Positions 18,301 through 46,672 of a DNA stretch of 46,672 nt are shown here, one piece after another. Below the pieces are notes generated by a model. The model was not told the DNA's origin and ran no database searches. It worked only from the letters and a program-made list of their open reading frames with translations. Made by a program: the position numbers and the translations under genes. The DNA comes from Puniceicoccales bacterium (GTDB lineage Bacteria > Verrucomicrobiota > Verrucomicrobiia > Opitutales > UBA953): positions 1-46,672 of the forward strand of contig JAIRPL010000005.1 in assembly GCA_031256995.1 (NCBI GenBank). Direction: 5' to 3'. Every line of letters starts with the position of its first letter. Within the stretch, counting starts at the first letter, position 1.

Positions 18301-20709
18301 GGTGCCGCTATCAAAAACAAGCTTCGCATTCTCGCCCCCGCCTATGGTTAGAATGCCCGCGACAACGGAGCTTGGGGTGAGTTCCACATCAAGGGCGCCG
18401 ACAGTCGTCTCCACGTTTTCCAAGGAGATCGTCTTGGAAAAAATCCCATCCCCAAGGGCGCCAACACCGTATTTGATGGAGGCTGTCACGCCAGGGGCGT
18501 TGGGAATGCGAAAAGGGTCGTCCCCTTCCCAATTGAAGTAATTGTGCCAGCGCCAATCCGAGGCGATGTTCACCCCGTCCACCGTGTTGTCAAAACGGCT
18601 GACAAGTCGTTGGCCGGCAGAAACAAGAAAATGCCCGATGCCGGGCGGGACGGGGTTCCCGCTTGAATCCACCCATTTCGCGCCCGGCTCGTAACCATAA
18701 AACCATACCTTCTCAGCCGGGAAGTCCGCCCCAAGACTCACACGATCCCAATTACTTGTGGAAGCAAGGTTCGCGACGTCCCCCTCCCAGCCCTTGATGC
18801 GCAGCATCTCCCCGGTGAAGCTTCCCATCTGCAAAGTGGTGCGGGTGGAGGCATCCCCCCCAAAGTCAAAATAAGCCGCGCACCCGGGCGCTATCCTGAC
18901 ATTCCCAAATGTCTGCTCGACGCCGCCCAAACGAATCCCCGCCATGGCGGCGAGGGGACTTTCGAAAAGAATGTCCATCCCGAAAAGTTGATTCGGGGCC
19001 GTCAACTGAAGCTCCCCGCCTGAGAAACGAATCTCACCAGACACATTCAGGTGTTCGATTGATTGGGCCAGCCTTGTCGTTCCCGCACCAGCAATTTCAA
19101 CTTTTCCAGAAATGTTGAGACTGCGGGGCGACGTCGCGGAAATCTCCTGGATGGTGCCGGCCGCCGGAGAAAACTTCCAGGAAATCCCGCTTCCGGGGAC
19201 CTGATTGGCCCCGGTTATCACGACATCCCGCCGCAACTCAAGCGTGGCATTCCCAGCATGCTGGAAAATGGTGCCGTCGAGAAATGCGGGCGCATCCACC
19301 AAAAGCACATTGGAGTAACCGCCGAATTCGATGACACCTCCCCCGAAATTGACCCGGCCGGCGTTGCTGATGCCAAGCGTGCCGCCATTGTTTATCGTGA
19401 TGTCTGCGGAATTCGTGAAATTGACAACGTTGAGATTCGCGCCGGCAGACTCCGAGGTGATTTCCAAGTGCGTGTAAGGCCCGTCAATGACAATGGCGCC
19501 CCTTCCCAAGGCCGAATCATTGCCAATTCCAATGTCAAAATCCGTTCCCGAAAGCCCTTGCGCGTTCACCCGGCCGGATAAAACTTTCAAGCCACCAAAA
19601 GTATTCAGAACGTTGCCTGTGTTTTGGAGGGTGAGGGTGCCCATCCCCGTTTTCGTCAACGTCCCGCCTGAGACCTGGCCGGTGACAACCATCTCCGCGT
19701 GAATTTCTGTTCCAATGGTATTGCCATTCGTGTCCAGAGCAAAATGGTTGGCATTAAAAATGAATCCGGGATTGGAACGATCGTTATAGTTGCCTCCACG
19801 GGCCAGGTTGAGCGTGGCATCCGGCTCAAAAATCACCTCTCCAACAACGGCAGACTTTGAACTGTTTTGATAGAGGATTGTGTTTCCGGACAGATCGTTG
19901 TATTGGATCGTCAACGTTCCGCCCTCTTTTCCAAAAAAATTGCTGCCGCCCGCGGAAGTGACATCCACCACTCCGCCGTTGAAAATAAAACTGGAGTAAT
20001 TTTGCGCCCCGGTCGAAAAACGAAGAGTTCCGGAACCAGTCTTGGTGACGGAGGCAGACGAGACATCGCCAACTTGGATGATCGAATTGAACTGTGAATC
20101 CAGCGTGATATTTCGCGCACTGGCAATCAGGGATTTATAAAAACGAATCTCGCCCCCAAGCTGCGAATGATTGCGCACAATGACATCACTCGTACTGGAG
20201 GACTCGACATTGGCCTGAAACGTGAGCATGGCCTTGGCGGTCAATTCAATCACGGCTGGATTGACCCCCGCGTTCAAGAGGACTTTGACAGAGCTTGATG
20301 AACTTCCAATGGTGAACGAAACCATGCTCCCCAACGCATCCGTGCCGTTCACAGAAATAAAACCAAGTGTCCGGTTTCCGTTAAGGGAAATCACCCTGCC
20401 GTTGAGTTCCTGATAGGCCGCGAGGTTGAAATTCGCCCTGTCCCCTTGGGCCGAGGGAAATGTCAAACCGCCATCCGGCGAGGTCCAATTCGTGCTGACA
20501 TTCCAGTCAAGATTCGTGGTGCCCGCCCAATTGTAGGTGGAGGCGGCGTGAATCGCCTCCGGCGCAAAATTCATGGCGGACAATGCCGCCGCCCCGGCCA
20601 GCACCCGATTCAACACCCGGCGACGCGGAGAGAACTCAAAAGGATTCCTGCTCGAGTTGACAGGGACGTTGGTATTCGAGGTTGAGGGTGATGCCTGCGG
20701 GGATTTCAT
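9328..20709 (-). CDS. giant PEP-CTERM protein with autotransporter-associated beta-strand repeats
   Basis: A 3793-residue secreted surface protein. The N-terminus has Arg-rich RRRVLNRVLAGAAALSAM, then a signal-peptide core cleaved near IHAAS. The body is a succession of beta-helix-type repeats built on patterns such as LTKTGMGTLTLQN, LSGRVN and GGTEF (the PATR-type passenger repeat). The C-terminus is a PEP-CTERM signal: VPEPSTYA, a hydrophobic helix, then RRRKNRKK. There is no C-terminal beta-barrel, so anchoring should be through an exosortase, which is not in the window. Trp/Asn-rich modules of the form W-G...NW recur at about residues 58, 723, 1435, 2383 and 3093 and divide the protein into units of about 660-950 residues. 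I chose the ATG at 20709 (MKSPQ) over the upstream ATG at 20772, whose extra 21 residues look untranslated. The N-terminal two-thirds appears AT-richer than the C-terminal third. Function is unknown; adhesion or matrix structure is plausible. Confidence 0.88.
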   Translation of the reverse strand: MKSPQASPSTSNTNVPVNSSRNPFEFSPRRRVLNRVLAGAAALSAMNFAPEAIHAASTYNWAGTTNLDWNVSTNWTSPDGGLTFPSAQGDRANFNLAAYQELNGRVISLNGNRTLGFISVNGTDALGSMVSFTIGSSSSSVKVLLNAGVNPAVIELTAKAMLTFQANVESSSTSDVIVRNHSQLGGEIRFYKSLIASARNITLDSQFNSIIQVGDVSSASVTKTGSGTLRFSTGAQNYSSFIFNGGVVDVTSAGGSNFFGKEGGTLTIQYNDLSGNTILYQNSSKSAVVGEVIFEPDATLNLARGGNYNDRSNPGFIFNANHFALDTNGNTIGTEIHAEMVVTGQVSGGTLTKTGMGTLTLQNTGNVLNTFGGLKVLSGRVNAQGLSGTDFDIGIGNDSALGRGAIVIDGPYTHLEITSESAGANLNVVNFTNSADITINNGGTLGISNAGRVNFGGGVIEFGGYSNVLLVDAPAFLDGTIFQHAGNATLELRRDVVITGANQVPGSGISWKFSPAAGTIQEISATSPRSLNISGKVEIAGAGTTRLAQSIEHLNVSGEIRFSGGELQLTAPNQLFGMDILFESPLAAMAGIRLGGVEQTFGNVRIAPGCAAYFDFGGDASTRTTLQMGSFTGEMLRIKGWEGDVANLASTSNWDRVSLGADFPAEKVWFYGYEPGAKWVDSSGNPVPPGIGHFLVSAGQRLVSRFDNTVDGVNIASDWRWHNYFNWEGDDPFRIPNAPGVTASIKYGVGALGDGIFSKTISLENVETTVGALDVELTPSSVVAGILTIGGGENAKLVFDSGTAGVPAKLDNLYISVIPSSRLILGVPVVLNGDLAINTTQTNSNARYQFSKKITGSGGIIKEGKGIVILTSPENDFSGGVHLNSGGLILEDGRALGSGRIYLGSASASPVSSIFLAIDADATQKRVTNEVVFQQDAGIAGIEFEGPAITLDKIYNIRVGRFDSDVGSYPDSTPENPNVSIKNVIKDADGESGSFYVSGMVDQSYPNRRLFLRLDNPSNSFSGILTSSGSVAAIVGLNQTSNLGLVIGSVAGGKNYFGTGGIMASAGTFVIKTNEGGKDVFVRGTDPDRPAIQVRWNGLVSIEGDGAAFVDGANSLIQVGSGSLNFATKKNHISSGIFKLTDSGRVAFTRGGSDNEISDGVFKLDSNTQLFVGHDVSAATTDSAPVLLKFTGGSIGALSSTASGGTIVLGDGGHFYFGGTGTLDPKINLLFSNATVDSRILSFGGATATLTFNSFRKEKNGTAFIDDSVRYISSPEYTVAGGTLRIAHSGQLLNESKEERARLVIEGGALALDDPHSFKTLVVKADRGSFNLEDKGGLTFESLESWEGASPGSVPFFLIQGISGSWDGTVGNNYVRFEVEPAPLGVNELNNIAFTGFEAGAAIRQNENAADPYYLVPSGLPTAEWIGSAFPNFSGTNWGDSGNWLNGNIPGTPGGLSSASFRDIDQRLGEDVSLGTANTDGKKIAVDDTYTIARLNVETSALRFELVGAGKLVFEDTPDLSARIKHIGVSTLTISSGIHLQSETHLILDAPRTDGFLHLSGKITGGALVKRQNTDGFAGHGDLRISNPSNEFNGFVWDDDVGHLQIRTREPNATPLGIGLITFGSSPSSVTNMETMESPSYQYGVLCAPGGILLHGDIALKYPTEYASAPSRYTYTGLTIDASGSPDGIRLSPGEHNISSYSVSYDGHAYSVRLKLLGDIHDAEPGQPASLVFREWGSTDIWLNGNSTFSGGTSFLSNHYNPTLVYVGNDNAFGTGVLTLSSGFHLVATDANGVELNTFTQGSRTLVNPLVILDGREKGFYGNWVLDDSSLDMGGHDICIGFGNTLAPANPQMGGSLLPSKNGLVLGENFVITGSNRLLYTGGASDYSVLRFNGSGSTYSGGTEFSVYTSDNKLGRVLLAADAVLDVDGNLLSGPFGTGTITFSSSNPVRLQRIVFSPWSTDSYRTARVIYNPVEFNGLREFEVSRPPEAENVADTIVFASPVPLVLNGANLGFVMWTGSLQIDSPIRDNNNGFTKTGLKSLVLTHPNNAITGQLRVDLGALVARSGSHAEGVQAGSIHLAPVGVAGRSEYFGTSQLVATGTGDFYVNRDDYAGSIAAIATETHGVTTVSTDSSNNQPFHLLKQAMFVAGGSATGMGMGFQGAGILRMAGPEGAMLHGQPLYTPDNPDAGWLVADTVRMDMPGLLRLGMNIRANHLQIGNGGTLWMADSNRLSGVVRLEFDNLSGGFGDSGTLDLNGKSQALRADVTDAPSGRRVSAIHVAQGVTGYIKLTDDTALSPAMPLRFTFGRIAEGSTGELHFINWQGDPDTGLGATRIIVTDYRRGEVVPNLYLEVPGGGLPSGMAIVKSNPDGERVLVPVQEELTWSGYAAEIASDAMTPANTYWEHRITPAGEQYAGGTFSNWEDRSIQGGPTDRWPGQSSMRQDAGRIVSFDTRKMPGNDAWNWGNLVIPITTDGFEKLGQGISNYDTGQAAIAGTIRLYGSNSNAQVTFASPDDVSGGITGPYSPASNPKLTLDGGASGDVANILVEVRGRLRFNLPIFLLDDNSADPAKSTTLVINTVRADSFVELNDTVMGSGDFAFIEKRGQGHLFIRGTNDGSNGMHGLAGGILLEGGHLYLGSPASVGAVSQGARLNLLGGTLHTVEDWFNPGGVGVPSQEIYKPGLGAPGSGDPNGELRPADLTIPNDYRLMGGVTLAGNKTLTLRNPLGDGVLGDVTVPSVVTIADPSGRLVLDGHSLTSTVYPIPTLTFDGPGGVFLRKSSRIAGVDIIANASAADAGTALVEISAKAVGVAAPPLRASSVINRGHGELRLSSYDGTGGSYGLVANEGPGVLAIRTENYAFTRTLANTGTPDSPSGLTGGPTRTALVRISGAGNTFSSGITVSNGGTIDIDAPTTVIGNVNVSNGSLLRIAAPVTAGPSDASMVSLTSMGRLMLDVDTATGSIGTLDTGSGGFVTIDNGILDFVVSAGGSHGLLSTSRIDTANNAFLQLRYDNGFDPSQFAIGYEINLFDASNGAPSTAPATFTNGAGWFFGANVSITHGGAPVVPPSGTSWKFDRLATEGVLYIGTQVSAGLYWDGTTSANVWNTTATNMNWRKDEAYALTRAQASAAGGNVPFSDRSRVIFDVGVGNDAAAGEEDQVLGVNVGTAIYVHSLLVTGPGSNFVFSGSSIRVSGPYVDPATNPNDPYAGILPALDVTDRATARFETPAAAPFLRINGGSTVTLVWSGSDPVGKFRFLSLLPNSAVQIITAYDTLVLEYGTTRYGAFSQDNQTLISGRGNLVKTGTGRLRMGGENTYNGVRVVGSEWKTFGGSTTVDGGELEISRGLGNGSPDFSYETHYLSASDILSFPTISRTSTRDYLGQITIGPSGTLAFRQQGNPAGQRLSGHIGHLDTPIGPNGVTHEASVDGQLLLSGDYYEIASRYNSFQGTLTIGPIAAHVRLLGGLGTLTDTYNSGTPAAVDYYRNDYSGSISISSSSIFEHANSRDPQIFRGVLTGPEDSIFRKTGSAAFHFQGDARGFSGHTRIENGLFSISNSAGNNYGSSNTKGSFHVGNSVGGVATLQTSSGTKIQTGEFILHTGSTLISGPSYFSAPSVGEVGLSILSQNVSIRGGSRIVVQTSSAMLVGLDPVSGKPSGITGSGTAAAISMAQGGAGGGYGRLDATTGGPITLSITPAYIPIDTDEAFLLMQNVSIVGADPTLLELDWDNPALLNLFSQDSFNFLSGDWHLYWKNTNLYLYRYAWRGMPSVPEPSTYALCGSLATLALTLFRRRKNRKK

Positions 20710-35348: not shown

Positions 35349-35445
<97 letters not shown>

Positions 35446-35989: not shown

Positions 35990-36836
35990 GATAGTGTCGT
36001 CACGAGATTGCAAGCCAAAGGTAAAGACAACGGATTTGGACGGCCGCGAGGTAGCTGGCGGCGTTTTTTAGATAGCGTGTGGCAATCGCGCGCCAGCCTT
36101 TGAGTCTCAAAAAGGCGTTTTCCACCAGGTGCCGCAATTTATGGAGATGGCGGTCATGCGGGCGCGGGTGGACGCGGTTCTTTTTGGACGGGATGACCAC
36201 CTCCATGCCGCGATTTCGCGCCTCCGCCACGACCGCGCTGGTGTCGTGGCCTTTGTCCGCGATCAGGCCCTTTCAGCGATCAGGCATTCGGCGGGCAGGT
36301 CTTTGGTCAACGCCCCAGCCTGTGTGCAATCAGCAACGGGACCCGCCGTGACAATGACTCGGACCGGCATGCCATGAGCATCCACGGCCAGATGTGTTTT
36401 CGTGTTGAGCCCCCTTTTGTGCGACCCATCGCCTGGTTGCCGCCCCTGGCCCCGGCCGCGTGCGGGTGCACTTTCACGTGGCTGGCGTCGATCATGAGCC
36501 ATTCGAAGTCGGGCTCCTCGATGATCTTTTCCAGCAACGCCTCCCACAGCCCCTTGTCCCGCCAGCGGCTGAACCTTCGCCGGGTGTTTTTCCATCCGCC
36601 GTAATCGGGCGGCAGATCCCGCCAGGGCACCCCGGTCCTCAAATGCCAGAACACCGCGTTGATAAAACGCCGGTTGTTTTCTGCCACCCCTCCCCATTGC
36701 CCTCTTTGTCCGGGCAGGTGCGGCTCAAGCGGCTCCACGCCCGGTCGTTCAAATCGTGTCGGTGATAGTCGGCTTCCATGCCTGCATAGTTTGTTTTCAA
36801 GCTCTTCGGTCAAGCCAATCTCGTGACGACACTATC
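35990..36836 (-). mobile_element. IS5-family (IS427-group-like) insertion sequence, 847 bp
   Basis: Both ends carry a perfect 21-base terminal inverted repeat beginning GATAGTGTCGTCACG: 35990-36010 on the left and 36816-36836 on the right in reverse complement. They are flanked by TA (35988-35989 and 36837-36838), consistent with a TA target duplication. The interior holds one transposase gene on the minus strand. Size and structure suit the IS427 group. The exact termini could differ by a base or two because both sides read TA. Confidence 0.88.
36000..36779 (-). pseudogene. IS5-family DDE transposase, frameshifted
   Basis: Reading from the ATG at 36779, MEADYHRHDLNDRAW is followed by a frameshift (about 36730-36745) into LEPHLPGQRGQWGGVAENNRRFINAVFWHL and the catalytic LMIDASHVKVHPHAAG. 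At about 36405-36415 an A-AAA-GGGGG run allows a -1 slip into LNTKTHLAVDAHGMP; IS427-group elements are known to use such a slip to join two frames, so this one may be programmed. The frame then ends at LIAERA-stop, but an adjacent imperfect copy of the same stretch restarts as LIADKGHDT and leads to VENAFLRLKGW, which carries the last catalytic Glu. The N-terminal frameshift and this short tandem duplication should inactivate the enzyme. Confidence 0.85.
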
Positions 36837-36872: not shown

Positions 36873-37555
36873 TTAGTTAATTGGAAATATTTTCTGCCAT
36901 TCGAGTTGCCTGAATTCCGCAAAACGTTTCAAGTCAGACATTTTTATCCAGCCGCTATCCGTGGCGGCGACCAAGGCGGCCCGGGCTTCTGCGGTGTCCA
37001 TAAGGCCCAATGTCTCGGTTTCGACCAGCAATTCGACCAGCACTTGCTCGGGGGCGGCGTGGTGATCTTGGGCGGGGGGGGTGCTTGGAATGGGTCGGAC
37101 GAAGGACGACCATCTTCTCTCCGGGGCGGATGTCGCGGGCGACATCGCGTTTGCCGGGGTTGACCGCGACTTCCCAGCCCTGCTCACGCAAGGTGTCGCC
37201 CACGGATTCGAGGGTCTCGCGGGGCACGTAGAGGAAGGCCACGGGCTGGGCCAGAAGGTGCTGCATCCACGGATTGAGCTGGGCGGTGCTCCACGCGCAG
37301 AAGTCAAGCAAGGGGAGCGCCTTTTTCGTTGCGCGAATGAGTTTCTGGATGGGCCTGGGGTCGAGCTTGAGAGGCTCGGAGAGGCGCCCATACCAGCCAC
37401 GACCGGCGTCGTGGATGAGGCCCTGTCGGGTCGCCTCGCTGAGATAGACGTTCAGGGTCGTTGACGGCGGCCTGCACCTCGGTGTGGGAGAAGTGGGCGC
37501 GGCGCGACTTGAGGCGACCGAGGAGATCGAAGAAAACGATTTGTTTGGCATCGAC
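36873..37555 (-). pseudogene. AbiEi/DUF6577-like winged-helix C-terminal extension of the methyltransferase (frameshifted)
   Basis: In frame with the methyltransferase, sequence from KQIVFFDLLGRLKSRRAHFS starts a winged-helix-like domain. One extra base in the GGG at 37455-37457 breaks the frame at AVND; removing it restores LNVYLSEATRQGLIH and a GRGWYGRLSEPL block. A second extra base in the G8 run at 37074-37081 breaks it again; seven bases would give PAQDHHAAPEQVLVELL, leading to LKRFAEFRQLEWQKIF and the stop at 36873. The domain resembles DUF6577 and AbiEi-type antitoxin proteins (about 220-250 residues), which are usually separate genes; no start codon separates it here. No AbiEii-like nucleotidyltransferase toxin is nearby. 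The family assignment is from memory of pattern and is moderate. Confidence 0.6.
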
Positions 37556-40500
37556 CGGAGCGGATTGGGCGGCCCAGCGCTGGTCCTCGGCGTCGAGGCC
37601 GTAGAGGGCGGCGACGCGGGCGTCGATCTCGGCTTCGACCTTGGCGATTTGCCCGGTGAGGGCGGCGGTCTCGTCGCGGGCGGCCTCGTAGAGTTTGAGA
37701 TCGGGGGCACGTCCGTGGAGCTTGCGGGCGCGTTTGGCGTAGTCTTCGGGCGCGAGGGACCAGGGTTGCTCCAGCGGGTTGCGCGAGGTGCTGTCGGCGG
37801 GGTCGAGGCTGAGGGCGCGGATGAACTGCTCGCTGCGGGCGCGGCGCTGGCCGTGCAGGGCTTGGGCCTGCTTGGCGAGTTGGCCGACGATTTCGCGGTC
37901 GGCGGTGGAGGCATCTGGGATGGGAAGTTTCTCGAAATAAATCGGCCTCAATATCGCCCGTCCCCTTTCTTCTTTGTCACCCAATACCGAGCAAATTTCC
38001 AGCAAATGACGAAATGCAGCGGCGGAGTTGATCACCCCCAGTAAATACGAATCTTCTGTTGAAATAAAATATGCTGGGGCGTTGAGACAAATTCCCTTGG
38101 TGTCCATGGGAAATCGAGCCTCTTTCGCAAAGGCAGGGATAATAATTTTAGTTCCGCAGAGCTTGTCATAATAATCGCAGGCTCGGAGTTCCCACCAGTG
38201 AGATCCTTGATCTGCTCTTTTACGCGCTTGTCGCTCGAAATGAAGCAAATGCTCCATTACAGCAGGATAACGATTCATTGGGGTGCCAATTTTCGTGAGT
38301 ATCACATACTGCCCCCTATAGTGTATTTCGTAGCGCCGAGCATCGTCTCCCGAAATGATCGGTCGGATAATTTCATCGGCGGCTGGATTCTTGGTCAAAA
38401 TGGCTTTGCGCGTCTCCTGATTAACCACGAAGGCCTCATTCAATCCCGTTTTAACACCATATAATATTTCCCCTTTATAGATTTCACCCAACGTTGGACC
38501 ACTGCGTTCCATTTTTTTTCGCAAGCTGGCGGTAGCAACGGTAGCTAGTCGAGGCTTCCCACTCCCAAATTGTGATGAAGGGACCCCGGTCGCAAGCTTC
38601 CCAAAATGCTGATGGACACTATCCTTGTAGCATTCATCCAGATTTTTCACCATCGCCCATTGTGTGGCGAGTTCACCTCGCGGCAGCTTACTCCAAGAAA
38701 ATATCGCGGCATCAGTGGCGGCGGTGTCGAAGATGCCGAGCTCACCGAAATCCATCACGAACCGGAACGCCTGTGCATCGAGCAAGTGCTGGCGGAGGGA
38801 TTCGCCGTAGCCTGCACGGAGCCATTTGTTAGACGAGATGAAGGCGGCGATGCCGCCGAGCCTAAGCAACTCGTGAGCGCGGGCGTAGAAGTAAACGTAA
38901 AGATCAGCGAGACCCGAGAATACTTCAGGAAACCGTCTTTTGAGAATTGGCTTTTGATCTTTGATCAGCTCCTGCCGCACATAAGGCGGATTGGCGACGA
39001 TGATGTCGAAACCTCCCGGCTGGGCCGGGACCGCGAGTTCGTCGCCCAGGTTGAGGCCACCGGAGAGTGTCTCGGTGGCGGGCGTGGGCATGAAGACCTC
39101 GGCGAACTCGATGGCCCAGTGGAAGGCGTCGTCGGGGCTTTGGCCGAGGCGGGAGTTTTCCGTGGCCAGCCAGCCCTTGATGTCGGTTTTAAGGCGGTCG
39201 ATCTCCTGGCGCAGAGCGGTTTTTTCAGGGCCGTGGGCGCGGAGGTGCCGGTCTTTTTTCAGACGAAACTCCTGAACCGCGGGGTTGATGAGCGCGGTGT
39301 TCTCGCTGTTGAGCACGGCGGCGGGCGCGGGTGCGGAGAGGGCGTCGCCCACCTCGATCTTGAAATCGAGATTGGGCAGGGGCGGAACTTTGTGGGCTGG
39401 GCCGTCATACTCGACCACGAGGGCGAGCCAGAGGCGAAGGCGGGCAATGTTGACGGCGAACGCGTCCTTATCGACGCCATAGAGGTTGCGCTCAATGATC
39501 TGGAGGCGGCGAGTGTAGGACGACTCGGGATCAGGCTTTTGCCGTGTGGCGAAGATGCGGGTGCGCAGGTCGAGCAGTTCGTGAAGCAGGCCGAGAAGGT
39601 AAGCGCCGGAACCGCAGGCCGGGTCGCAGATTTTCACGTCCACCAGGGCGCGGTGAATCGCTTCGGGATCGCGCAGGGCGGAGGCGTCGTCCTCGTGGAC
39701 GAATTTTTCCAGGGCGGCGCGGGACTCGGCCGGGCAGCGGTCGGCGAGGTGCTCGACGAGGGCGGCACGGCCCATGAAGGCGACGATGGGCTTGGGCGTG
39801 TAGTAGCTGCCCTGCTCGTGGCGACCGGTGATGAGTTCCTCGAACACTTTTCCCAGCATCTCGGGATCGACGGCGACATTGATCTCCAGCGGCGTGCTCT
39901 CGGCCACGGTGAAGTTGTAGCGTGAGAAAAGGCCGCTTTCGGAATCAAGGATGAGGGCGAGGGCCTCGTCGGGCACGCGGAGGGAGGCGAGCCGGTCGGT
40001 GCCGTCCTCGGCGTATTCGAAGAGGCCGCCGTTGAGGTAGGGCACGGAGCCGAAGCGCGGGTCGGTGGAGTCGGCGGGGCGGTCGGGCTGATTGAGTCCC
40101 GCAAAAAAAAGCGGCGTGAGGCGGTCGGCGTAGAAGTTGCCCGGCGCGGACCCGGTGCGGCGTTTGGCGGTGTAGTCGTCCCACAGCGCGGCGAGGTAGT
40201 CGGTGCGCCGGTCAAAGCGGAGCCAGCCCTTGCGCTCGACGAAGGCGAGGAACATGAGCCGGTTGAAGAGGCGCTGGGTGAAGAGGCGGAGCGGCTCCTT
40301 GTCCGGGAGCGAGGGGCGTATGTGAGTCTCAACGGCGTCGAACACGCGACCGTAGTCGCGGTAAAACTCCTTGAAGAGGGGCTCGACCTTGAACGCTTCT
40401 ATCAGGTCGGCGAGCTGGGCACGCGCGCCGAGGGAGCGAAGCAACTCCAGGCGCTCCAGCGCGGTGCGGCAGGGCTGGCCGGGACCGAAAAGGTAGGTGT

Positions 40501-40909
40501 AGCGGCGCGGGGCGGTGGCGTACTGTTCAAGCTGACCATCGGCGGAGAAGTTGTTGGTGCGGGTGGCAAAGGAGAAGCGGTAGTCGGGCGCGTCGCCGAC
40601 GAAGAAGGCGAGCACGGCGTCGGCCTGCGGCTGGCCGATGAAGCGGGCGACAAGCTTGTGCAGCCCAGCGCGGTTGCGCTGCAAGTCCACCTGCCCGGAG
40701 ACGCGGACTTCGAGCACGGCGACGGTGCGGTCGCCGGTGAGCGGGATACTCGCGATCTGTGCGGCGGAGACGATGGCGTCGGATGGAATGGCGAGCGGCT
40801 TCGGAGCGGCAAAGGCCTAGGTCGCGGGCAGCAGGTGGTGAAGCAGGGGGAGCCAGCGCGCGCGGTCGTAGGGAGATTGAAGGAAGGATTTGAGTTCGTC
40901 GCGGGTCAT
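37304..40909 (-). pseudogene. Eco57I-class DNA methyltransferase (type IIG/BREX-PglX-like), with in-frame amber codon
   Basis: A very large SAM-dependent adenine methyltransferase-like protein. Residue numbers count from the ATG at 40909 (MTRDELKSFLQ), six bases after the stop of the NYN gene. Motif I DPACGSGAYLLGLL begins at Asp429 and the catalytic motif IV NPPYVRQE at Asn640. The upstream helical part contains LMFLAFVERKGWL and GSYYTPKPIV, typical of Eco57I-class enzymes. After motif IV comes a TaqI-like target-recognition region, including GVKTGLNEAFVV, IIRPIISGDDARRY and YFISTEDSYLLGVINS. I see no clear nuclease motif in the N-terminal part. Codon 31 is TAG (40819-40817) inside otherwise continuous homologous sequence. 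Without it the frame runs on to the AbiEi-like tail. Translation could restart internally, but the longest uninterrupted frame lacks the first roughly 60 residues. Confidence 0.85.
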
Positions 40910-40915
40910 GGGAAA

Positions 40916-41599
40916 TCAGGAGGCGGGCCAAGCGCGGGGCCGCTCCAGCACGGCACCGCTGGCCAAGGTGATCGAGGCGGGGAAGAGGTGGTTGGTGATG
41001 CCATCAAGCGGCAGGGCGCGGCAGGTCACACCGATGGAGGGATAATAATCGTTGCGTCGGTCTTTGGCCTCCTCCGGAAGAGTGGGAATGTAAACCGCGA
41101 TTTTGATCGCGGTGTGATTGGTCCGCACCCAAGCCACGGCGGGCTCCAGATCGGAGTCACCGGAGACGATGACCGCGCAATCCATGCGGTCGCGAAGGGC
41201 ATCATCGATGAGGTGGACGACGATGTTTACATCGGTCTTTTTCTCCTCGCCTACCTCATACTGAAGGTTGCGACCGCAGGCGGGGGCGCGGCAGGTGACG
41301 GTACGATTTTGATATTTGCCAAGCACAACCGTGGTCCTAGGCAGGGTGCGCAGGGCGGAGAGGTAACGTTGCTGGCGGTCTCGGCGCGGGCTGGTGCTCA
41401 GTCTGGGCTCCACAAGGGCGGAGAAAAATTTGACCGCTATGATCTCCTCGTCCGGACGGAGGGCTTGGAAGAACGATTCCACGTCCAACCACTTCCAGGA
41501 CGGGCGCTCCGCAAAGATTCCGTAATACCAGTTGAAAGCATCGATGTAGATGATGGTGCGACGTTTGGGCGGTGGCGGCGCGGAAGGGGAAGAATCCAT
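40916..41599 (-). CDS. NYN/PIN-like (DUF88/LabA-type) putative ribonuclease
   Basis: A 227-residue protein. YIDAFNWYYG supplies the first acidic residue (Asp20) and the Asn-Tyr-Asn-like signature. KKTDVNIVVHLIDDAL gives Asp123, and VIVSGDSDLEPAV gives Asp148 and Asp150: the four-acid metal-binding set of NYN domains, which are PIN-fold nucleases usually acting on RNA. Two cysteines in CRAPACG (103 and 108) lie in an insertion that looks like half of a zinc knuckle. The ATG at 41599 is chosen because the frame upstream is Pro/Arg-rich and runs into the helicase gene. It sits 55 bases after the helicase and 6 bases before the methyltransferase start, so it belongs to the operon. NYN proteins are not standard members of restriction systems. 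Confidence 0.85.
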   Translation of the reverse strand: MDSSPSAPPPPKRRTIIYIDAFNWYYGIFAERPSWKWLDVESFFQALRPDEEIIAVKFFSALVEPRLSTSPRRDRQQRYLSALRTLPRTTVVLGKYQNRTVTCRAPACGRNLQYEVGEEKKTDVNIVVHLIDDALRDRMDCAVIVSGDSDLEPAVAWVRTNHTAIKIAVYIPTLPEEAKDRRNDYYPSIGVTCRALPLDGITNHLFPASITLASGAVLERPRAWPAS

Positions 41600-41654
41600 C
41601 GAATAAAGGCTTGATTTTGGATGAAAGAGGACAATCTTTGGTGAACTTCTCGCT

Positions 41655-44600
41655 TTAAGCGATGGGGTGATCCGCAAGGGTTGCCCCTTTTTTGTGCCCG
41701 GATGCCGCGGTCGCTGTCGCCGGGTGGTCAAAGGATTCGGTGAGGATGATTTCGGGTTCGGTCTCGGCACGGCGAAGGGTCTCAGCGGCACCGACACCCT
41801 GGCTCTCCATGTCCTCCAACTTATACTCGCGGAGGATGTCGAAGAGTTTGTCGGCGAGGACGGCGGGGGTGACCTTCACCTTCTTGGTGTCGCGCTGGAG
41901 TTTGTTGATCTCGCGCTGGAGGCTGGCGTAGCGGGCACGGGCAAGGGCGAGCTTGGCGAGGCGGATGAGACGGCGCTCCTCGTCGCTGATGAAGTCGAAG
42001 GCAAGGAAGCCATCGATGAAGTCGCGGGCGCGTTTCTCGTTGGGGCCCTGTCTGGCCTCGACGGCGAGGGGCGCAAGGGTGTCGGCGATGACGGCTTCGC
42101 GGAAGGCGGCGGTGGCGGCGTTGACCTGAGCGTGGTGGTCGCGGTGAAGGGCGATGGCGGGTTCGTCGATATGGGTGGCGCGAAACTCGCGGGCGGCCTC
42201 GGTGAAGGTGATTTCCTCTGGCCCGGCGTCGGGGCGGATACGATAAAACGCGTCGCGGTGGGCATTGCGGATGAAGGCGACGGTGCCGCTGGCGCGGGGC
42301 GGATCAGCGCGGCCCACGCGACAGCGGGCGGGGAGCTTGGCGATGCGGCGGAATTGTTCGGGGTTTTCGGCACGGAAACGGCGCAGCTCCATGAGCAGGG
42401 TGAGGCGTTCGTCGCGTTCGTTGTCCTCGGGGACTTTTTCGAAGAGACCGAAGGTATCCACCTCTTCGTCGGTGGAGTAAATCTGGCTGTCCTCGCCGAG
42501 CACGGAATGGAAGGCTTGGAGCTTCATGATGGCCTTCTTGCGCAGCTCGATGTCGTCATCGACGCGGGAGGTGGGGTAGAAGTTGTAGATGTAAACGCGG
42601 GGCGCGAGGGAGCCGATGCGGTTGACGCGGCCGATGCGCTGCATGAGCCGGGTGGAGTTCCACGGGGTGTCGTAATTGACGATGATGTTGGCGCGGTGGA
42701 GGTTCACCCCCTCGGCGAGTACCTCGGTGGAGAGGATGAGGTCGAAGTCGTCGCGGCGTTTGCCGGAGTAGTTGGCGTCGAAGTTGGCGCGGATGTCGTC
42801 GCGGCGGGCGTTGCGGTTCCCAGCGTCGATGGTGAGGACGCGATTGAATCCGGCGATGGAGAGACGTTTGGTGAGGTAGTCGGTGGTTTCCCTGGATTCG
42901 GAGAAGACAACGAGTTTGCCTTCGCGGTTGATGTCGCGGTGGAGCAACTCGTCGCGCAGGTAGCGGAGAAAGCGGTCGAACTTGGGGTCCTGATTGGATG
43001 CGACCACCTGCTCCCAATCGGCGAGGATGGGGGCGATGCGCTCGAGGTCGCGGCGGAGTCCGGCAAGCAGGTCTTCGGAAAAGTCCTCGGGGTTGCAGAC
43101 TTCGATGGTGGGGTCGGCGTCCTGTTTCTCGGCGATGAGCGCGACGAGTTCTTCCTCGCGGCCTTCGAGGATGAGCTGGTTCACTGAAAGGTTGGGCGCG
43201 ATGTAAACGGTGCCGCGCTCGAACATGCCGATCATGACCTGGGTGGCGTTGTGGAAGCGGCGCAGGGACGCGGTGAAGGCGTAGAAAGAACTGTCGAGGC
43301 GCTTCACGAGCAGCGTGCGCATGATGGTGGCGAGCTGTTGGGAGATGCGGTCGGCGTTCTGGTATTTTTTCTTCAGGTCGGCGCGAAGGAAGGAGAGCGC
43401 CCGGTAGCGGTTGTAGGTGAGGCTGGTCGGGGTGCCGGTCGAAAGGACCTGGACGGTGCGGTCGTAGAGGGATTCCAGCTCGGAAGAGAGCGGATAGAGG
43501 ATATGGCGAGGGCGTTCGATGGCCGGAAAATGGATGCTCTGGGCTTCGAGGTCGCGCTTGTAGTCTTCGTTTTCGTCGAGGTCCGTGCGGGTGCGGCGGA
43601 CGATGATTTCGCTGATAACCTTGGTGCGAATCCGCTCGTAAATGGCGACGACGGCGCGGCGAGCGGCCTCGACATTGGGCTCCTTCCTGGCCTCGCGGAA
43701 CTCGCGTTCGCGCTGGGCGAAGAAGTGTTGGAGGTTGCCGACGCTGAGGGTGGAACGTTTCAGGTCTTGGAAAAGGGCGAGTTGGTTGCGGATGTCCTGA
43801 GGGGCGTTGTTGAGCGGGGTGGCGGAAACGAGGATAACTTTCTTCTCGGCGAGCGAGCCGTCGGGGAGCTTGCGGAGCGTGCCGGATTTGCAGAGACGCT
43901 GAAGGTCGTCGAAGGCCTCGGCAGTGTCGTTGCGGAACTTATGAGCCTCATCGACGATGATGAGATCGTATTTCTGGGGATTGCGGACCTTGTGGAGCGA
44001 GCCGTTGGTGACTATATCGCAGTTATCGAGATGGAAGCGTTCCTTGGTTTCGCGCCAGTTTTCCTCCAGCGCGGGCGGGCAGACGATGAGGGTGTGGGAG
44101 CGGTGATCGGGAAAGCCGTTGTGGAAGAAAAACTTTCGGGCGATGAGGCAGGCGATAACGGTTTTGCCCAAGCCGACGACATCGGAGAGGAAGAAGCCGT
44201 TGTGCTTTTCGAGAAGGCGGTAACCGTTGTTCACGGCGTCGATCTGGTAGCTGAGACGCTTAAAGCCGTCGGGCAGGTCTGAAATGGCGTTGGGGTCGTA
44301 GTCTATGGCCGGGCCGAAGTATTCGGTGAGAAGTTTGTAGTAGAGTTCGTAAGGCGTGATCGTGGTCGCGAGGTAGGTGGAGTCGCGAACGGCAAGGACG
44401 GTCTTGGGCAGCACATCGACGGACTCGGCCCAAAGTTTTTCGAACTCGTCGGAGGCGAACTTCACGTCGTCGTAGTCGTGGAGCAGGACGTTGAATTCGT
44501 AGTTACGGGACTGTTCTTCGACTCCGAGTCCAGCAGCGGTCAGGTTGGACGAGCCGGTAATAACGGCACCGGGCTTGTGCTCGCACCAACCAGAGGGAAG

Positions 44601-45017
44601 GAAAATGTAGATTTTGGCGTGAAGGCGTTTGGTAGGGTGGGCCTTGATCGCGAGTTTGCCGGACACCACGTCTTCGACGAAGCTGAGAATGCCGGTTTCG
44701 ATGTCGGGACGGTATTCCGCTTTCTGGATGTCGGCTTTAAGGCGGCGCTGGAAATCTTCGAGGGCTTTGGCGGGATCAGCGAGAAATAAGAGTCCGCGTT
44801 TGTGGTAGTCGGCGACGATCTCGTCCACGTCGATGCCGACAAGAATGCGAACCTTGGGAACTTGGGACAGGTGAGGACGGAGGGCGAAGTAACCGGACGC
44901 ACGCAGGTAGCCGACCAAGGCGTCGAAACGCTGAATGTCAGGATTGTGATGGAAAACGCCCCCTAGTTTGGCGAAGAGGGTATTGATACCGGCGTTGGTG
45001 AAGAAGCGGGTGGACAT
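41655..45017 (-). CDS. PLD-nuclease-like / SNF2-family helicase
   Basis: An 1120-residue, undamaged protein. The N-terminal domain (about residues 1-210) has the phospholipase-D-like motif LHAKIYIF...GSSNLT, with His133. Next is a superfamily 2 helicase with DVVGLGKTV (Walker A Lys285), VDEAH (Asp356), SATPLNN, the FSESRETTDYLTKRL block in the second RecA lobe, STEVLAEGVNLH and the arginine finger motif QRIGRVNRIGS. A long helical C-terminal region follows (about 850-1120). This is the layout of helicases that accompany Eco57I-type methyltransferases in defence-like loci. A single PLD motif means it would have to pair with itself to form an active nuclease site. The start is 5 bases after the stop of the 142-residue protein, so translation is probably coupled. 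Confidence 0.92.
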   Translation of the reverse strand: MSTRFFTNAGINTLFAKLGGVFHHNPDIQRFDALVGYLRASGYFALRPHLSQVPKVRILVGIDVDEIVADYHKRGLLFLADPAKALEDFQRRLKADIQKAEYRPDIETGILSFVEDVVSGKLAIKAHPTKRLHAKIYIFLPSGWCEHKPGAVITGSSNLTAAGLGVEEQSRNYEFNVLLHDYDDVKFASDEFEKLWAESVDVLPKTVLAVRDSTYLATTITPYELYYKLLTEYFGPAIDYDPNAISDLPDGFKRLSYQIDAVNNGYRLLEKHNGFFLSDVVGLGKTVIACLIARKFFFHNGFPDHRSHTLIVCPPALEENWRETKERFHLDNCDIVTNGSLHKVRNPQKYDLIIVDEAHKFRNDTAEAFDDLQRLCKSGTLRKLPDGSLAEKKVILVSATPLNNAPQDIRNQLALFQDLKRSTLSVGNLQHFFAQREREFREARKEPNVEAARRAVVAIYERIRTKVISEIIVRRTRTDLDENEDYKRDLEAQSIHFPAIERPRHILYPLSSELESLYDRTVQVLSTGTPTSLTYNRYRALSFLRADLKKKYQNADRISQQLATIMRTLLVKRLDSSFYAFTASLRRFHNATQVMIGMFERGTVYIAPNLSVNQLILEGREEELVALIAEKQDADPTIEVCNPEDFSEDLLAGLRRDLERIAPILADWEQVVASNQDPKFDRFLRYLRDELLHRDINREGKLVVFSESRETTDYLTKRLSIAGFNRVLTIDAGNRNARRDDIRANFDANYSGKRRDDFDLILSTEVLAEGVNLHRANIIVNYDTPWNSTRLMQRIGRVNRIGSLAPRVYIYNFYPTSRVDDDIELRKKAIMKLQAFHSVLGEDSQIYSTDEEVDTFGLFEKVPEDNERDERLTLLMELRRFRAENPEQFRRIAKLPARCRVGRADPPRASGTVAFIRNAHRDAFYRIRPDAGPEEITFTEAAREFRATHIDEPAIALHRDHHAQVNAATAAFREAVIADTLAPLAVEARQGPNEKRARDFIDGFLAFDFISDEERRLIRLAKLALARARYASLQREINKLQRDTKKVKVTPAVLADKLFDILREYKLEDMESQGVGAAETLRRAETEPEIILTESFDHPATATAASGHKKGATLADHPIA

Positions 45018-45022
45018 GCTTT

Positions 45023-45451
45023 TTAAGGAACATCCGCAGAGTCCTCAGCGGATTTAGGCGGGAGGAAAGATGCGCCACGTTTCAAGCGAGCCGAAGTTTG
45101 ATCAGCAATGAGAGCGATAAACTTATCGGGCTCAGACCACCGTTGGGAGCTTTTACCAGGATCAAAGCCGTTGGCTTTCACAATGGCTTTGAGGACGAGA
45201 AGATCGAAATCCCGCAGCCAAAATCGGAACTCAGTTTCACCCTTGTCTTGAAAAGCTTTGAGCACGTCGGGGATCTCAATATCTGCGGTCGGAGCCTTGG
45301 GCTTAGACGTCTTTTTATTGGCGGCACCGGCAGGGAGGTCGGCAACGACAGCTTCCAGCCGCTGGGCGAATGCCGGATTGCGGGCAGCCTCGTCTTCGAC
45401 GAGTTCGACTAAAGCGCGAAGCGCGCGGATTAGTTTTTGGCCAGGTTGCAT
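45023..45451 (-). CDS. 142-residue protein of unknown function in defence-like operon
   Basis: I do not recognise this family. The N-terminal third is helical and charged (LIRALRALVELVEDEAARNP), the middle has a Lys/Ala/Thr/Pro linker (about residues 45-57), and the C-terminal half has a compact pattern with IEIPDVLKAFQDKGETEF, FDLLVLKAIVKANGFDP and RWSEPDKFIALIADQ. No membrane segment or signal peptide is visible. It overlaps the end of the ParA gene by 22 bases and stops 5 bases before the helicase, so it is embedded in the operon and very probably works with its neighbours, perhaps as an adaptor. The position is strong evidence that it is a real gene; the function is unknown. Confidence 0.8.
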   Translation of the reverse strand: MQPGQKLIRALRALVELVEDEAARNPAFAQRLEAVVADLPAGAANKKTSKPKAPTADIEIPDVLKAFQDKGETEFRFWLRDFDLLVLKAIVKANGFDPGKSSQRWSEPDKFIALIADQTSARLKRGASFLPPKSAEDSADVP

Positions 45452-46509
45452 CGTTCGATGATCTCCTTGGTAAGGTTGTAATGGGTCTCGTAGTTGGGGC
45501 CGTATTTTTTGCGGAAAGTATTGAGACCGGCATCGGCATCGGCACCGCGCGCGGTATTGGCATTTTGTGCGATGGCTGCCTCGAAGAGCGGCGGTTGTTC
45601 GAGATCGGTATCGTTGCCCTCAAACAGACGGCCGGCACGAAGCTGGTTGAGCACTCGCTGGTGTAGATCGATATTGCCTTGGACCTTGGTCGCTACGATC
45701 CCAAGGGGGCGAATGGGGGGGGCGCGGTTGATGCTGTCGGAAAAGGCCTCGATGCTGCTGACGATCTGGAAAATACCCCAGGTGGAAACGATGTCGGGGA
45801 TCGCCGGGATGACGTAGTGGGTCGAGAAGCGAAGCCCGTTCTTGGTAACAATTCCGAGGCTGGGAGGGCAATCGATAATGACGAAGTCGTAACGGTCGAT
45901 CACAGGGGCGAGCGCGCGCCGCAAGATGTCTTGGGGGTTGTTCTCGTAGTTGCCCTGCATGGCGACAAACGGGAGTTTTTCCTGGATGTCGATGAACTCG
46001 ATGCTTGATGGAAGGAGATCGAGCCGGGCGATGCCGCCGTTAATGGTGGAGACGCTGTGAATGATGGACTCCTCGACATTGAAGACGGGTTTGGCTTCGG
46101 GACGGAGTTTGTCCTTGAAAAGCTGCGCGAGCGTGCGTCCGTCCTTGTCGCGTTTCCCCCACTCCTCTTCGCCGATTAGATTGATCGTGGCATTGGTCTG
46201 GGGGTCGAGATCGATGAAGAGGACATGCTTACGGAAGTCCTTGGCGAGAATCTCGGCGACGGCAACGGAGGTGGTGGTCTTGGCCACGCCGCCCTTGAGA
46301 TTGATGAAGCTGATGACCTTGGTTTGGTAGCCGTCCTTCGCTTTCAACCATTCAGAAATGACTTCGGCGTCCCAAACGGGACCGGCCTGAAGCGTCTGAA
46401 CGGGCCTGGGAAAATGATCAAAGCGCTGCCGCCAATTGGCGACCGCCTGTTTGGTGACGCCGGCCAGTTCGGCAATTTCAGATACACCTACGAGCTTTCT
46501 TGATGCCAT
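45430..46509 (-). CDS. ParA-family ATPase with N-terminal helix-turn-helix
   Basis: A 359-residue protein. Residues about 6-55 form a helix-turn-helix (ISEIAELAGVTKQAVANW-like, with WDAEVISEWL after it), resembling MerR/phage-regulator types. The ATPase domain starts at VISFINLKGGVAKTTTSV (deviant Walker A, residues 72-79), followed by FIDLDPQTNAT (Walker A') and FVIIDCPPSLG (Walker B). The signature Lys and the Asp-rich strands match the ParA/MinD/Soj group. No ParB gene or obvious centromere repeats are nearby. It is the first gene of the minus-strand operon and overlaps the next by 22 bases, so it is a component of the defence-like cassette rather than a plasmid partition gene. The HTH may let it bind its own promoter. 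ATG at 46509 chosen; no strong ribosome site is visible. Confidence 0.88.
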   Translation of the reverse strand: MASRKLVGVSEIAELAGVTKQAVANWRQRFDHFPRPVQTLQAGPVWDAEVISEWLKAKDGYQTKVISFINLKGGVAKTTTSVAVAEILAKDFRKHVLFIDLDPQTNATINLIGEEEWGKRDKDGRTLAQLFKDKLRPEAKPVFNVEESIIHSVSTINGGIARLDLLPSSIEFIDIQEKLPFVAMQGNYENNPQDILRRALAPVIDRYDFVIIDCPPSLGIVTKNGLRFSTHYVIPAIPDIVSTWGIFQIVSSIEAFSDSINRAPPIRPLGIVATKVQGNIDLHQRVLNQLRAGRLFEGNDTDLEQPPLFEAAIAQNANTARGADADAGLNTFRKKYGPNYETHYNLTKEIIERCNLAKN

Positions 46510-46539
46510 AATGAAACAATGTCGCGGATGCGTGAACGT

Positions 46540-46545
46540 TGTCAA
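46540..46545 (-). promoter_or_regulatory. candidate -35 box/operator upstream of the HTH-ParA gene
   Basis: On the minus strand TTGACA, a perfect -35 hexamer, lies 30 bases upstream of the ATG, within the near-palindrome GTTGACAAC. The -10 region is poor and would put the start point close to the ATG. The palindrome could be a binding site for the HTH of the ParA-like protein. About 130 further bases to the window end show no gene. Confidence 0.3.
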
Positions 46546-46672
46546 CAAAAAATAGGTTGTGTCCGGAAAGTTTCGCACATTTGTGGAGGCATGTGGAGGG
46601 CGGGGGAAGGTTTATTGTTGGTTCTTTTGTCGGTTATTTTGTGGAAGTTTATGGACGGGAGTAGACCGTCCT

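What the first reader, a model, noticed from the sequence alone, without database searches (positions are those of the whole stretch)
36873..46509. Five-component defence-like operon: HTH-ParA, small unknown protein, PLD-SNF2 helicase, NYN nuclease, Eco57I-class methyltransferase
Seen in the sequence: five consecutive minus-strand genes with overlaps or gaps of 22 bp overlap, 5, 55 and 6 bases, next to a tRNA, an integrase remnant and an IS. Known: SNF2 helicases with PLD domains and large Eco57I-class methyltransferases occur in restriction-like defence (DISARM, BREX), and a helicase-methylase-ATPase type ('Hma') has been proposed in defence catalogues. Inference: this is a related or new type in which a ParA-type ATPase replaces the usual STAND, AAA or PglZ partners and an RNA-directed NYN nuclease is added.
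Basis: partly seen in the sequence, partly recalled or inferred. Interest (0 to 1): 0.85.

Follow-up and report, generated by a model that had tools for sequence, protein, structure and literature searches.

The report
Portable ParA switch before restriction genes
The five genes are not one fixed defence system: a two-gene ParA cassette, carrying a conserved DNA palindrome upstream that is predicted to be its own binding site, sits in front of a restriction system whose methyltransferase gene is broken, and because relatives of the cassette sit in front of other, unrelated defence genes it likely works as a portable switch for them.

Summary
The five genes are there, but not as a conserved unit. 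In 387 genomes of the phylum the helicase occurs in 21 and the NYN gene in 12; only this genome is on both lists. The helicase's regular partner is an Eco57I methyltransferase, in some loci fused to an AbiEi-like domain and followed by AbiEii. In the window that gene is broken and AbiEii was not found. HTH-ParA and the 142-aa gene form a separate cassette. It precedes type I R-M genes (two loci) and Thoeris-like genes (a decayed copy), lies beside DISARM genes, and stands among phage genes in viral contigs. In all 21 distinct HTH-ParA loci the small gene follows and a palindrome TGTNNAC-N3-GTNNACA lies upstream; 8 HTH-less ParA genes lack the palindrome, 7 of them the small gene too. I infer an autoregulated ATPase switch placed before different defence operons. 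Binding, repression and signal are untested. In the 16 loci outside the Verrucomicrobial group no recognised defence gene directly follows, so a stand-alone role is a serious rival.

The parts
46531..46547 (-). Palindrome TGTTGAC-AAC-GTTCACG, 21 bp before the ParA start codon: predicted operator
   Evidence: 9 of 10 core positions; 5 of 1000 shuffles reach 9; such a site in 21 of 21 distinct HTH-ParA loci and 0 of 8 HTH-less controls; distance to the start codon; 16-bp pattern found at 46532-46547
45430..46509 (-). HTH-ParA (359 aa): N-terminal helix-turn-helix region, residues about 1-60, then ParA ATPase
   Evidence: Pfam AAA_31 1.3e-38, HTH_28 only 0.0088; solved relatives are Soj/ParA proteins; alignment A2
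45023..45451 (-). Small helical partner protein (142 aa), directly after HTH-ParA
   Evidence: No match in Pfam, PADLOC or NCBIfam at E<=0.01; 102 homologues; AlphaFold model all-helical, mean pLDDT 78
41655..45017 (-). PLD-SNF2 helicase (1120 aa), core of the restriction system
   Evidence: Pfam SNF2-rel_dom, Helicase_C, PLDc_2; 21 of 387 genomes of the phylum, own included
40916..41599 (-). NYN-domain protein (227 aa), PADLOC candidate HEC-09, inserted between helicase and methyltransferase
   Evidence: PADLOC HEC-09 1.1e-43; PF01936 9.3e-11; absent from the helicase-methyltransferase junction in the 17 loci where it can be seen
37451..40909 (-). Eco57I-class N6 methyltransferase part of a fused gene, with an early in-frame stop
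   Evidence: PF07669 4e-36, TaqI_C 2e-6; aligned to intact relative P0105, 70.9% identity
36873..37464 (-). DUF6577/AbiEi-like C-terminal domain of the same gene, lying in two other frames (broken)
   Evidence: PF20217 4.7e-19, PADLOC AbiEi 3.6e-17, pieces
36003..36813 (-). IS4/5-family transposase fragments at the place where five relatives have AbiEii
   Evidence: PF13340 2e-21, PF01609 7e-5
35349..35442 (+). tRNA-Ser(gct), possible island edge
   Evidence: ARAGORN

Best explanation
The locus is a composite: a portable two-gene cassette (HTH-ParA plus a small, predicted helical protein, with a conserved palindrome upstream that is its predicted operator) stands in front of a broken PLD-SNF2 helicase / methyltransferase-AbiEi restriction system with an unrelated NYN gene inserted, and the cassette is likely an autoregulated ATP-dependent switch for the defence operon behind it. 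Shown: the cassette's boundaries, its recurrence in front of or beside unrelated defence genes, the constant pairing of HTH-ParA with the small gene, and the palindrome that goes with the HTH. Inferred: the HTH binds the palindrome and represses the common promoter, as plasmid ParA/RepA proteins repress their own operons; the small protein, by analogy with ParB, changes the ATP state of ParA when it meets a signal (possibly unusual or foreign DNA), so that the cassette and the restriction genes behind it are derepressed. For the restriction core, inferred from relatives: the PLD-SNF2 helicase acts on unmodified DNA, the methyltransferase protects host DNA, and its fused AbiEi domain would hold the AbiEii toxin in check. 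That arm is broken in this window.
For: Modularity: DNA identity of the window to L067 (84.7%) runs from 46562 to the small gene's stop codon at 45023; to L062 (82.4%) 46562-45053; L063 (73%) and L064 (67%) start at 46550-46551 and end before the stop. Different genes follow on the same strand: type I HsdM 9 bp (L062) and 0 bp (L064) behind the small gene, with HsdS and HsdR genes further on; Thoeris-like ThsB about 29 bp behind (L066, a decayed copy); the helicase 5 bp behind (window). DISARM DrmD and DrmMII lie beside L063, PLD_Helicase and DUF1156_MTase beside L069. Pairing: 17 of 17 HTH-ParA viral contigs have the small gene directly downstream, 0 of 7 HTH-less ParA do; the ParA and small-protein searches each hit the same 4 of 72,556 plasmid records. 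Operator: palindrome with 9-10 of 10 core positions in 21 of 21 distinct HTH-ParA loci (shuffles reach 9 in 0.1-2.2%; in-gene control at most 7), at most 7 in 8 of 8 HTH-less ParA; a second copy scoring at least 8 lies 22-23 bp away in 11 of 21. L068 has the small protein but neither HTH nor palindrome, so the palindrome goes with the HTH. Plasmid pSS37A-Re-4 has a separate annotated repABC, so the cassette is not its only partition unit. Restriction core: methyltransferase next to the helicase in 17 of 20 loci; AbiEi-like domain plus AbiEii in 5 of the 11 where the methyltransferase gene can be seen to its end; 92 of 93 proteins found with this C-terminal domain, the query's own record included, also carry methyltransferase domains.
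Confidence: 0.45

Rival explanations
1. The HTH-ParA / small-protein cassette is a self-contained unit (a phage moron or small defence or addiction module) with its own regulated promoter; its place in front of restriction genes is incidental clustering in islands.
For: In viral contigs it sits among phage genes without defence genes directly behind it, e.g. between terminase and portal genes in L094, beside portal genes in L101 and L102, near a terminase gene in L091. A predicted operator of its own fits a self-contained unit.
Against: In four Verrucomicrobial loci (one a decayed copy) a defence gene starts 0 to about 29 bp behind the small gene on the same strand, closer than island clustering needs.
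Confidence: 0.3
2. It is a partition (par) module that keeps a mobile island, prophage or plasmid in the cell: ParA, a small ParB-like protein and a palindromic centromere-operator.
For: Anatomy resembles par loci: ParA-family ATPase, small second gene, 17-bp palindromes upstream, doubled 22-23 bp apart in 11 of 21 loci.
Against: Only 4 of 72,556 plasmid records carry it, and the one read in full has repABC as well. The palindrome goes with the HTH, not with the small gene (one case, L068).
Confidence: 0.15
3. One reading: all five genes are one dedicated defence system with ParA as the ATPase and NYN as an RNA effector.
For: Tight co-directional spacing of the five genes in the window.
Against: The five were not found together in any other locus read; ParA and the small protein pair with unrelated systems; the methyltransferase is broken.
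Confidence: 0.06

Closest known systems
Controllers of associated pathways: CapW/BrxR, CapH+CapP, CapK+CapS (PMC13373217, passages read; PMC9122601, passages read)
   Same: A small regulator unit, sometimes two genes, at the promoter side of diverse unrelated immune operons; predicted repression through an operator in the shared promoter
   Different: None of their named domains (WYL, peptidase, GHKL kinase, STAS) was matched; the switch here is a ParA-type ATPase with an N-terminal HTH plus an unknown helical protein; no damage sensing shown
RptR, repressor of type I R-M islands (PMC12255303, abstract and outline read)
   Same: Repressor at restriction operons that binds palindromic sites in the promoter (here predicted)
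   Different: RptR is a small DNA-binding protein, site TAGCTA; here a ParA ATPase and a partner, site TGTNNAC-N3-GTNNACA
Plasmid ParA/RepA proteins that autorepress par or repABC operons (recalled for P1 ParA and SopA; RepA in PMC4492784, seen only as title and start of abstract in a search listing)
   Same: ParA ATPase with DNA-binding part, second gene behind it, site in its own promoter region
   Different: The second gene is no recognisable ParB; only 4 of 72,556 plasmid records carry it; most copies seen are in defence neighbourhoods or viral contigs
Hma / DUF499-centred BREX-related systems (PMC8565338 passages; PMC12839542 abstract, passages, sections 29, 30 and part 1 of 35)
   Same: SNF2 helicase with N-terminal HKD/PLD nuclease (type 2) plus an adenine methyltransferase
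   Different: No DUF499 ATPase, DUF1156-type methyltransferase or DUF3780 matched; the methyltransferase is Eco57I/TaqI-C with AbiEi fusion
AbiE type IV toxin-antitoxin system
   Same: AbiEi-like domain, and an AbiEii (PF08843) gene next to it in five relatives
   Different: AbiEi is the C-terminal domain of a methyltransferase; AbiEii was not found in the window or its genome

Membership tests
Hma / DUF499-centred BREX-related system | DUF499 (HmaC) ATPase | tested here: not met
   The operon's ATPase is AAA_31/ParA; no DUF499 among Pfam matches of the five genes
Hma / DUF499-centred BREX-related system | N6 methyltransferase with DUF1156 | tested here: not met
   Pfam: Eco57I, MmeI_Mtase, N6_Mtase, TaqI_C, no DUF1156; HmaB is not among the 25 best of 67 PADLOC matches shown
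Hma / DUF499-centred BREX-related system | SNF2 helicase with N-terminal HKD nuclease (type 2) | tested here: met
   PLDc_2 best at residues 119-196, SNF2 at 257-328, Helicase_C at 687-802; HmaA only 1.6e-33, partial
DISARM | SNF2 helicase that passes the DrmD cut-off | tested here: not met
   DrmD 175 bits against a cut-off of 610
BREX | PglX methyltransferase that passes its cut-off | tested here: not met
   Best PglX models 69.8-73.8 bits against cut-offs of 400-900
Controllers of associated pathways (CapW, CapHP, CapKS) | Homology to a known controller family | tested here: not met
   Pfam, NCBIfam and PADLOC give ParA-type matches for the first gene and nothing for the small protein
Controllers of associated pathways (CapW, CapHP, CapKS) | Sits at the promoter side of diverse immune operons | tested here: met
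   Type I R-M (L062, L064), Thoeris-like (L066, decayed copy), PLD-SNF2/methyltransferase (window) directly behind it; not so in the 16 other distinct loci
Controllers of associated pathways (CapW, CapHP, CapKS) | Represses the operon through an operator | tested here: inconclusive
   Palindrome in 21 of 21 loci, 0 of 8 controls; no binding or expression data
ParABS partition module | ParA ATPase | tested here: met
   PF13614 1.3e-38; Soj and P1-type ParA among solved relatives
ParABS partition module | Recognisable ParB-type partner | tested here: inconclusive
   No ParB-type Pfam match for 28 family members at E<=10; fold searches weak
ParABS partition module | Is the partition unit of the replicon that carries it | tested here: inconclusive
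   pSS37A-Re-4 has an annotated repABC elsewhere; stability not testable here
AbiE type IV toxin-antitoxin | AbiEi and AbiEii both present | tested here: not met
   AbiEi-like domain present; AbiEii: no significant match in the window or the incomplete genome; both present in L025, L026, L027, L029, L031
HEC-09 (PADLOC Hma-embedded candidate) | Matches the HEC-09 profile over its length | tested here: met
   1.1e-43, profile positions 2-202 of 203

The most novel reading that the evidence does not exclude
HTH-ParA plus its small helical partner and their shared palindrome are a further family of portable immune-operon controllers, the first built on a ParA-type ATPase, found in Verrucomicrobiota, Pseudomonadota and viral contigs, where nucleotide state rather than phosphorylation, proteolysis or ligand binding sets whether restriction genes are expressed.
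Probability: 0.35. Interest if true: 0.8.

Novelty: new variant of a known kind. Interest (0 to 1): 0.62.

Why it matters
How restriction and other immune operons are switched on without killing the host is an open question, and only a few portable controller families are known. A ParA ATPase as the switch would link partition-type nucleotide cycling to immunity, and the 17-bp site makes the idea directly testable with a reporter. Separately, a methyltransferase carrying an AbiE antitoxin domain next to its toxin would be a built-in guard against loss of the methyltransferase.

Tried and rejected

Rows dropped before the count of 21: L088 (same contig as L067), L097 (same DNA as L096 over ParA) and L098 (near copy of L096, not letter-identical), plasmid NZ_AP027145 (near-identical hit to NZ_AP027146), L065 and L066 (5' end of ParA broken or missing). 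L068 was used as a control because it lacks the HTH. Neighbours for profile scans were chosen by eye from ORF lists; not all ORFs were scanned, and names without a profile call are marked as read by eye. The search admitted only proteins of at least 0.55 times 1345 aa, so stand-alone DUF6577 proteins could not appear in it.
Full report
OBSERVATION. Five co-directional minus-strand genes are present: HTH-ParA (46509-45430), a 142-aa gene (45451-45023, here called SML), a PLD-SNF2 helicase (45017-41655), an NYN gene (41599-40916) and an Eco57I methyltransferase (from 40909). The last gene is not open: it has an in-frame stop at codon 31 and its C-terminal part lies in two other frames. The intact relative P0105 (1353 aa) aligns to the window in three consecutive pieces from 40909 to 36876. 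Its C-terminal part is DUF6577, which PADLOC scores as AbiEi. IS4/5 fragments follow and a tRNA-Ser lies at 35349-35442.

NOT A FIVE-GENE SYSTEM. In 387 genomes of the phylum the helicase (E<=1e-100) is in 21, NYN (E<=1e-15) in 12, SML (E<=1e-6) in 1; only the window's own genome is common to the lists. I fetched 20 of the 21 other helicase matches with flanks. tblastn at 1e-4 found the methyltransferase next to the helicase in 17 of 20; the other three contigs (L034, L041, L044) end on that side. ParA, SML and NYN were found in 0 of 20; L031 and L033 end too soon upstream to judge ParA and SML, and the three just named cannot show NYN. The closest relative, L031 (87% identical helicase, same order), has no NYN between helicase and methyltransferase. 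That junction is a variable slot: Xre/MbcA/ParS-type and RES-domain genes in L028, DUF3800 in L032, DUF4062 in L043.

THE RESTRICTION CORE. In L025, L026, L027 and L029 the methyltransferase and DUF6577 are one open reading frame of 1,345-1,408 aa, directly followed by AbiEii (PF08843); in L031 the gene is split over two frames but AbiEii follows. Of 11 loci in which the methyltransferase gene can be seen to its end, these 5 have the AbiEi-like domain and AbiEii; in the other 6 (L028, L032, L036, L039, L042, L043) tblastn with the window's pieces found no AbiEi-like match, and I did not scan them for AbiEii. A database search with the C-terminal 206 residues of the L026 protein, restricted to proteins of similar length, gave 93 proteins, the query's own record included; 92 have methyltransferase domains as well, and the exception, P0169, carries Cas3-type helicase domains. 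AbiEii has no significant match in the window or the own, 90%-complete genome. By established AbiE biology (antitoxin AbiEi, nucleotidyltransferase toxin AbiEii; recalled) I infer that the fusion ties toxin control to the presence of the methyltransferase; this is untested.

THE CASSETTE. A scan of genome contigs with an SML alignment gave 5 loci, viral contigs 1. ParA precedes SML in all six, though it is truncated in L065 and L066, and SML of L066 is split over two frames. Behind SML: type I HsdM genes (L062, gap 9 bp; L064, gap 0) with HsdS and HsdR genes further on; ThsB-type genes and a SLOG-patatin gene (L066, gap about 29 bp); a type II methyltransferase about 1 kb on (L065); an integrase on the other strand (L063), whose other side carries DISARM DrmD and DrmMII; and a contig end (L067). 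DNA similarity to the window begins about 40-55 bp before ParA and, in L067, ends exactly at the SML stop codon. In plasmids, separate searches with SML and ParA hit the same four records: Caballeronia, Rhizobium (beside PLD_Helicase and DUF1156_MTase) and two Methylocystis plasmids. On one of the latter the cassette lies 1.8-2.5 kb from genes annotated as multiubiquitin, E2/UBC and ThiF, and the plasmid has its own repABC.

A scan of viral contigs with a ParA alignment gave 24 loci. All 17 ParA proteins with the N-terminal HTH have SML directly downstream; none of the 7 without it has one. Upstream of the HTH the palindrome TGTNNAC-N3-GTNNACA is present with 9 or 10 of 10 core positions in 21 of 21 distinct HTH-ParA loci; dinucleotide shuffles reach 9 in 0.1-2.2% of cases, an in-gene control never exceeds 7, and the 8 HTH-less ParA genes never exceed 7. 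In 11 of the 21 a second copy scoring at least 8 lies 22-23 bp away. The Caballeronia locus L068 has SML but neither HTH (tblastn) nor palindrome, so the palindrome belongs with the HTH; this rests on one case. In the window the palindrome ends 21 bp before the start codon; a promoter scan there found no sigma-70-type pair.

HOW IT LIKELY WORKS. Shown: cassette boundaries, pairing, palindrome, varied neighbours. Inferred: HTH-ParA binds the palindrome and represses the promoter that also serves the genes behind it; SML acts on the ATPase; a signal changes the state. ParA-family proteins are known to repress their own operons (recalled for P1 ParA and SopA; RepA in PMC4492784, title and abstract start in a listing). 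The design matches that of CapW/BrxR, CapH+CapP and CapK+CapS, which sit before diverse immune operons (PMC13373217, PMC9122601, passages read). The weak point: in the 16 distinct loci other than the window, L062, L063, L064 and L067, none has a recognised defence gene on the same strand within 100 bp; several are flanked by phage genes (Pfam-confirmed terminase or portal genes in L091, L094, L101, L102; also L067). Defence-type genes lie within several kilobases in some (type I R-M in L092, a type III-like methyltransferase and helicase in L103, ShosA in L099, IetS in L100), without a matched control. So a stand-alone role is the main rival.

WHAT IS KNOWN. NYN matches PADLOC HEC-09; HECs are 'Hma-embedded candidates', several with shown antiviral activity (PMC12988326, passage), so a link of this NYN family to restriction loci is not new. 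Hma is now described as a DUF499-centred BREX-related system (PMC12839542, passages and sections 29, 30, part 1 of 35); the window's genes show no DUF499, DUF1156 or DUF3780. DUF6577 is in no paper of the library. None of the titles and abstract starts listed describes a ParA-based immune controller.

VERDICT. The restriction arm is decayed here. The new point is the portable HTH-ParA/SML cassette with its constant palindrome.

Noticed in passing
L025 9813-15149; L026 9841-15037; L027 4452-9783; L029 4774-10056: Methyltransferase fused to an AbiEi-like domain and followed by AbiEii: an antitoxin domain built into a modification enzyme; 92 of 93 database hits have the same fusion.
   Followed up: partly
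P0169: A protein of 1024 aa joins the same DUF6577 domain to Cas3-type helicase domains, so the AbiEi-like domain may be fused to other defence enzymes too.
   Followed up: no
L028 9857-11289; L032 13097-13873; L043 11000-12469; window 40916-41599: The junction between helicase and methyltransferase is a cargo slot: Xre/RES-domain genes, DUF3800, DUF4062 or NYN.
   Followed up: partly
L062 466-1368 and L067 5385-6287: The same kind of 300-aa protein, read by eye as a phage capsid protein (no Pfam match), lies upstream of the cassette in both; L067 also has terminase and Mu-type portal genes. This suggests a cargo site in one prophage type.
   Followed up: partly
L094 1-4394: The cassette lies between the terminase large subunit and portal genes of a phage, in the same direction, with its own palindromes.
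   Followed up: partly
L074 1845-4967; L075 7464-10163: The two closest NYN relatives lie near an HsdR gene and a different SNF2 helicase gene, so this NYN family may favour restriction or helicase neighbourhoods.
   Followed up: partly
window 18567-18582: A second exact match to the 16-bp pattern in the window, far from ParA; perhaps chance in GC-rich DNA.
   Followed up: no
L067 10429: The IMG/VR contig ends exactly at the stop codon of the small gene, as an assembler would do at a junction with several different continuations.
   Followed up: no
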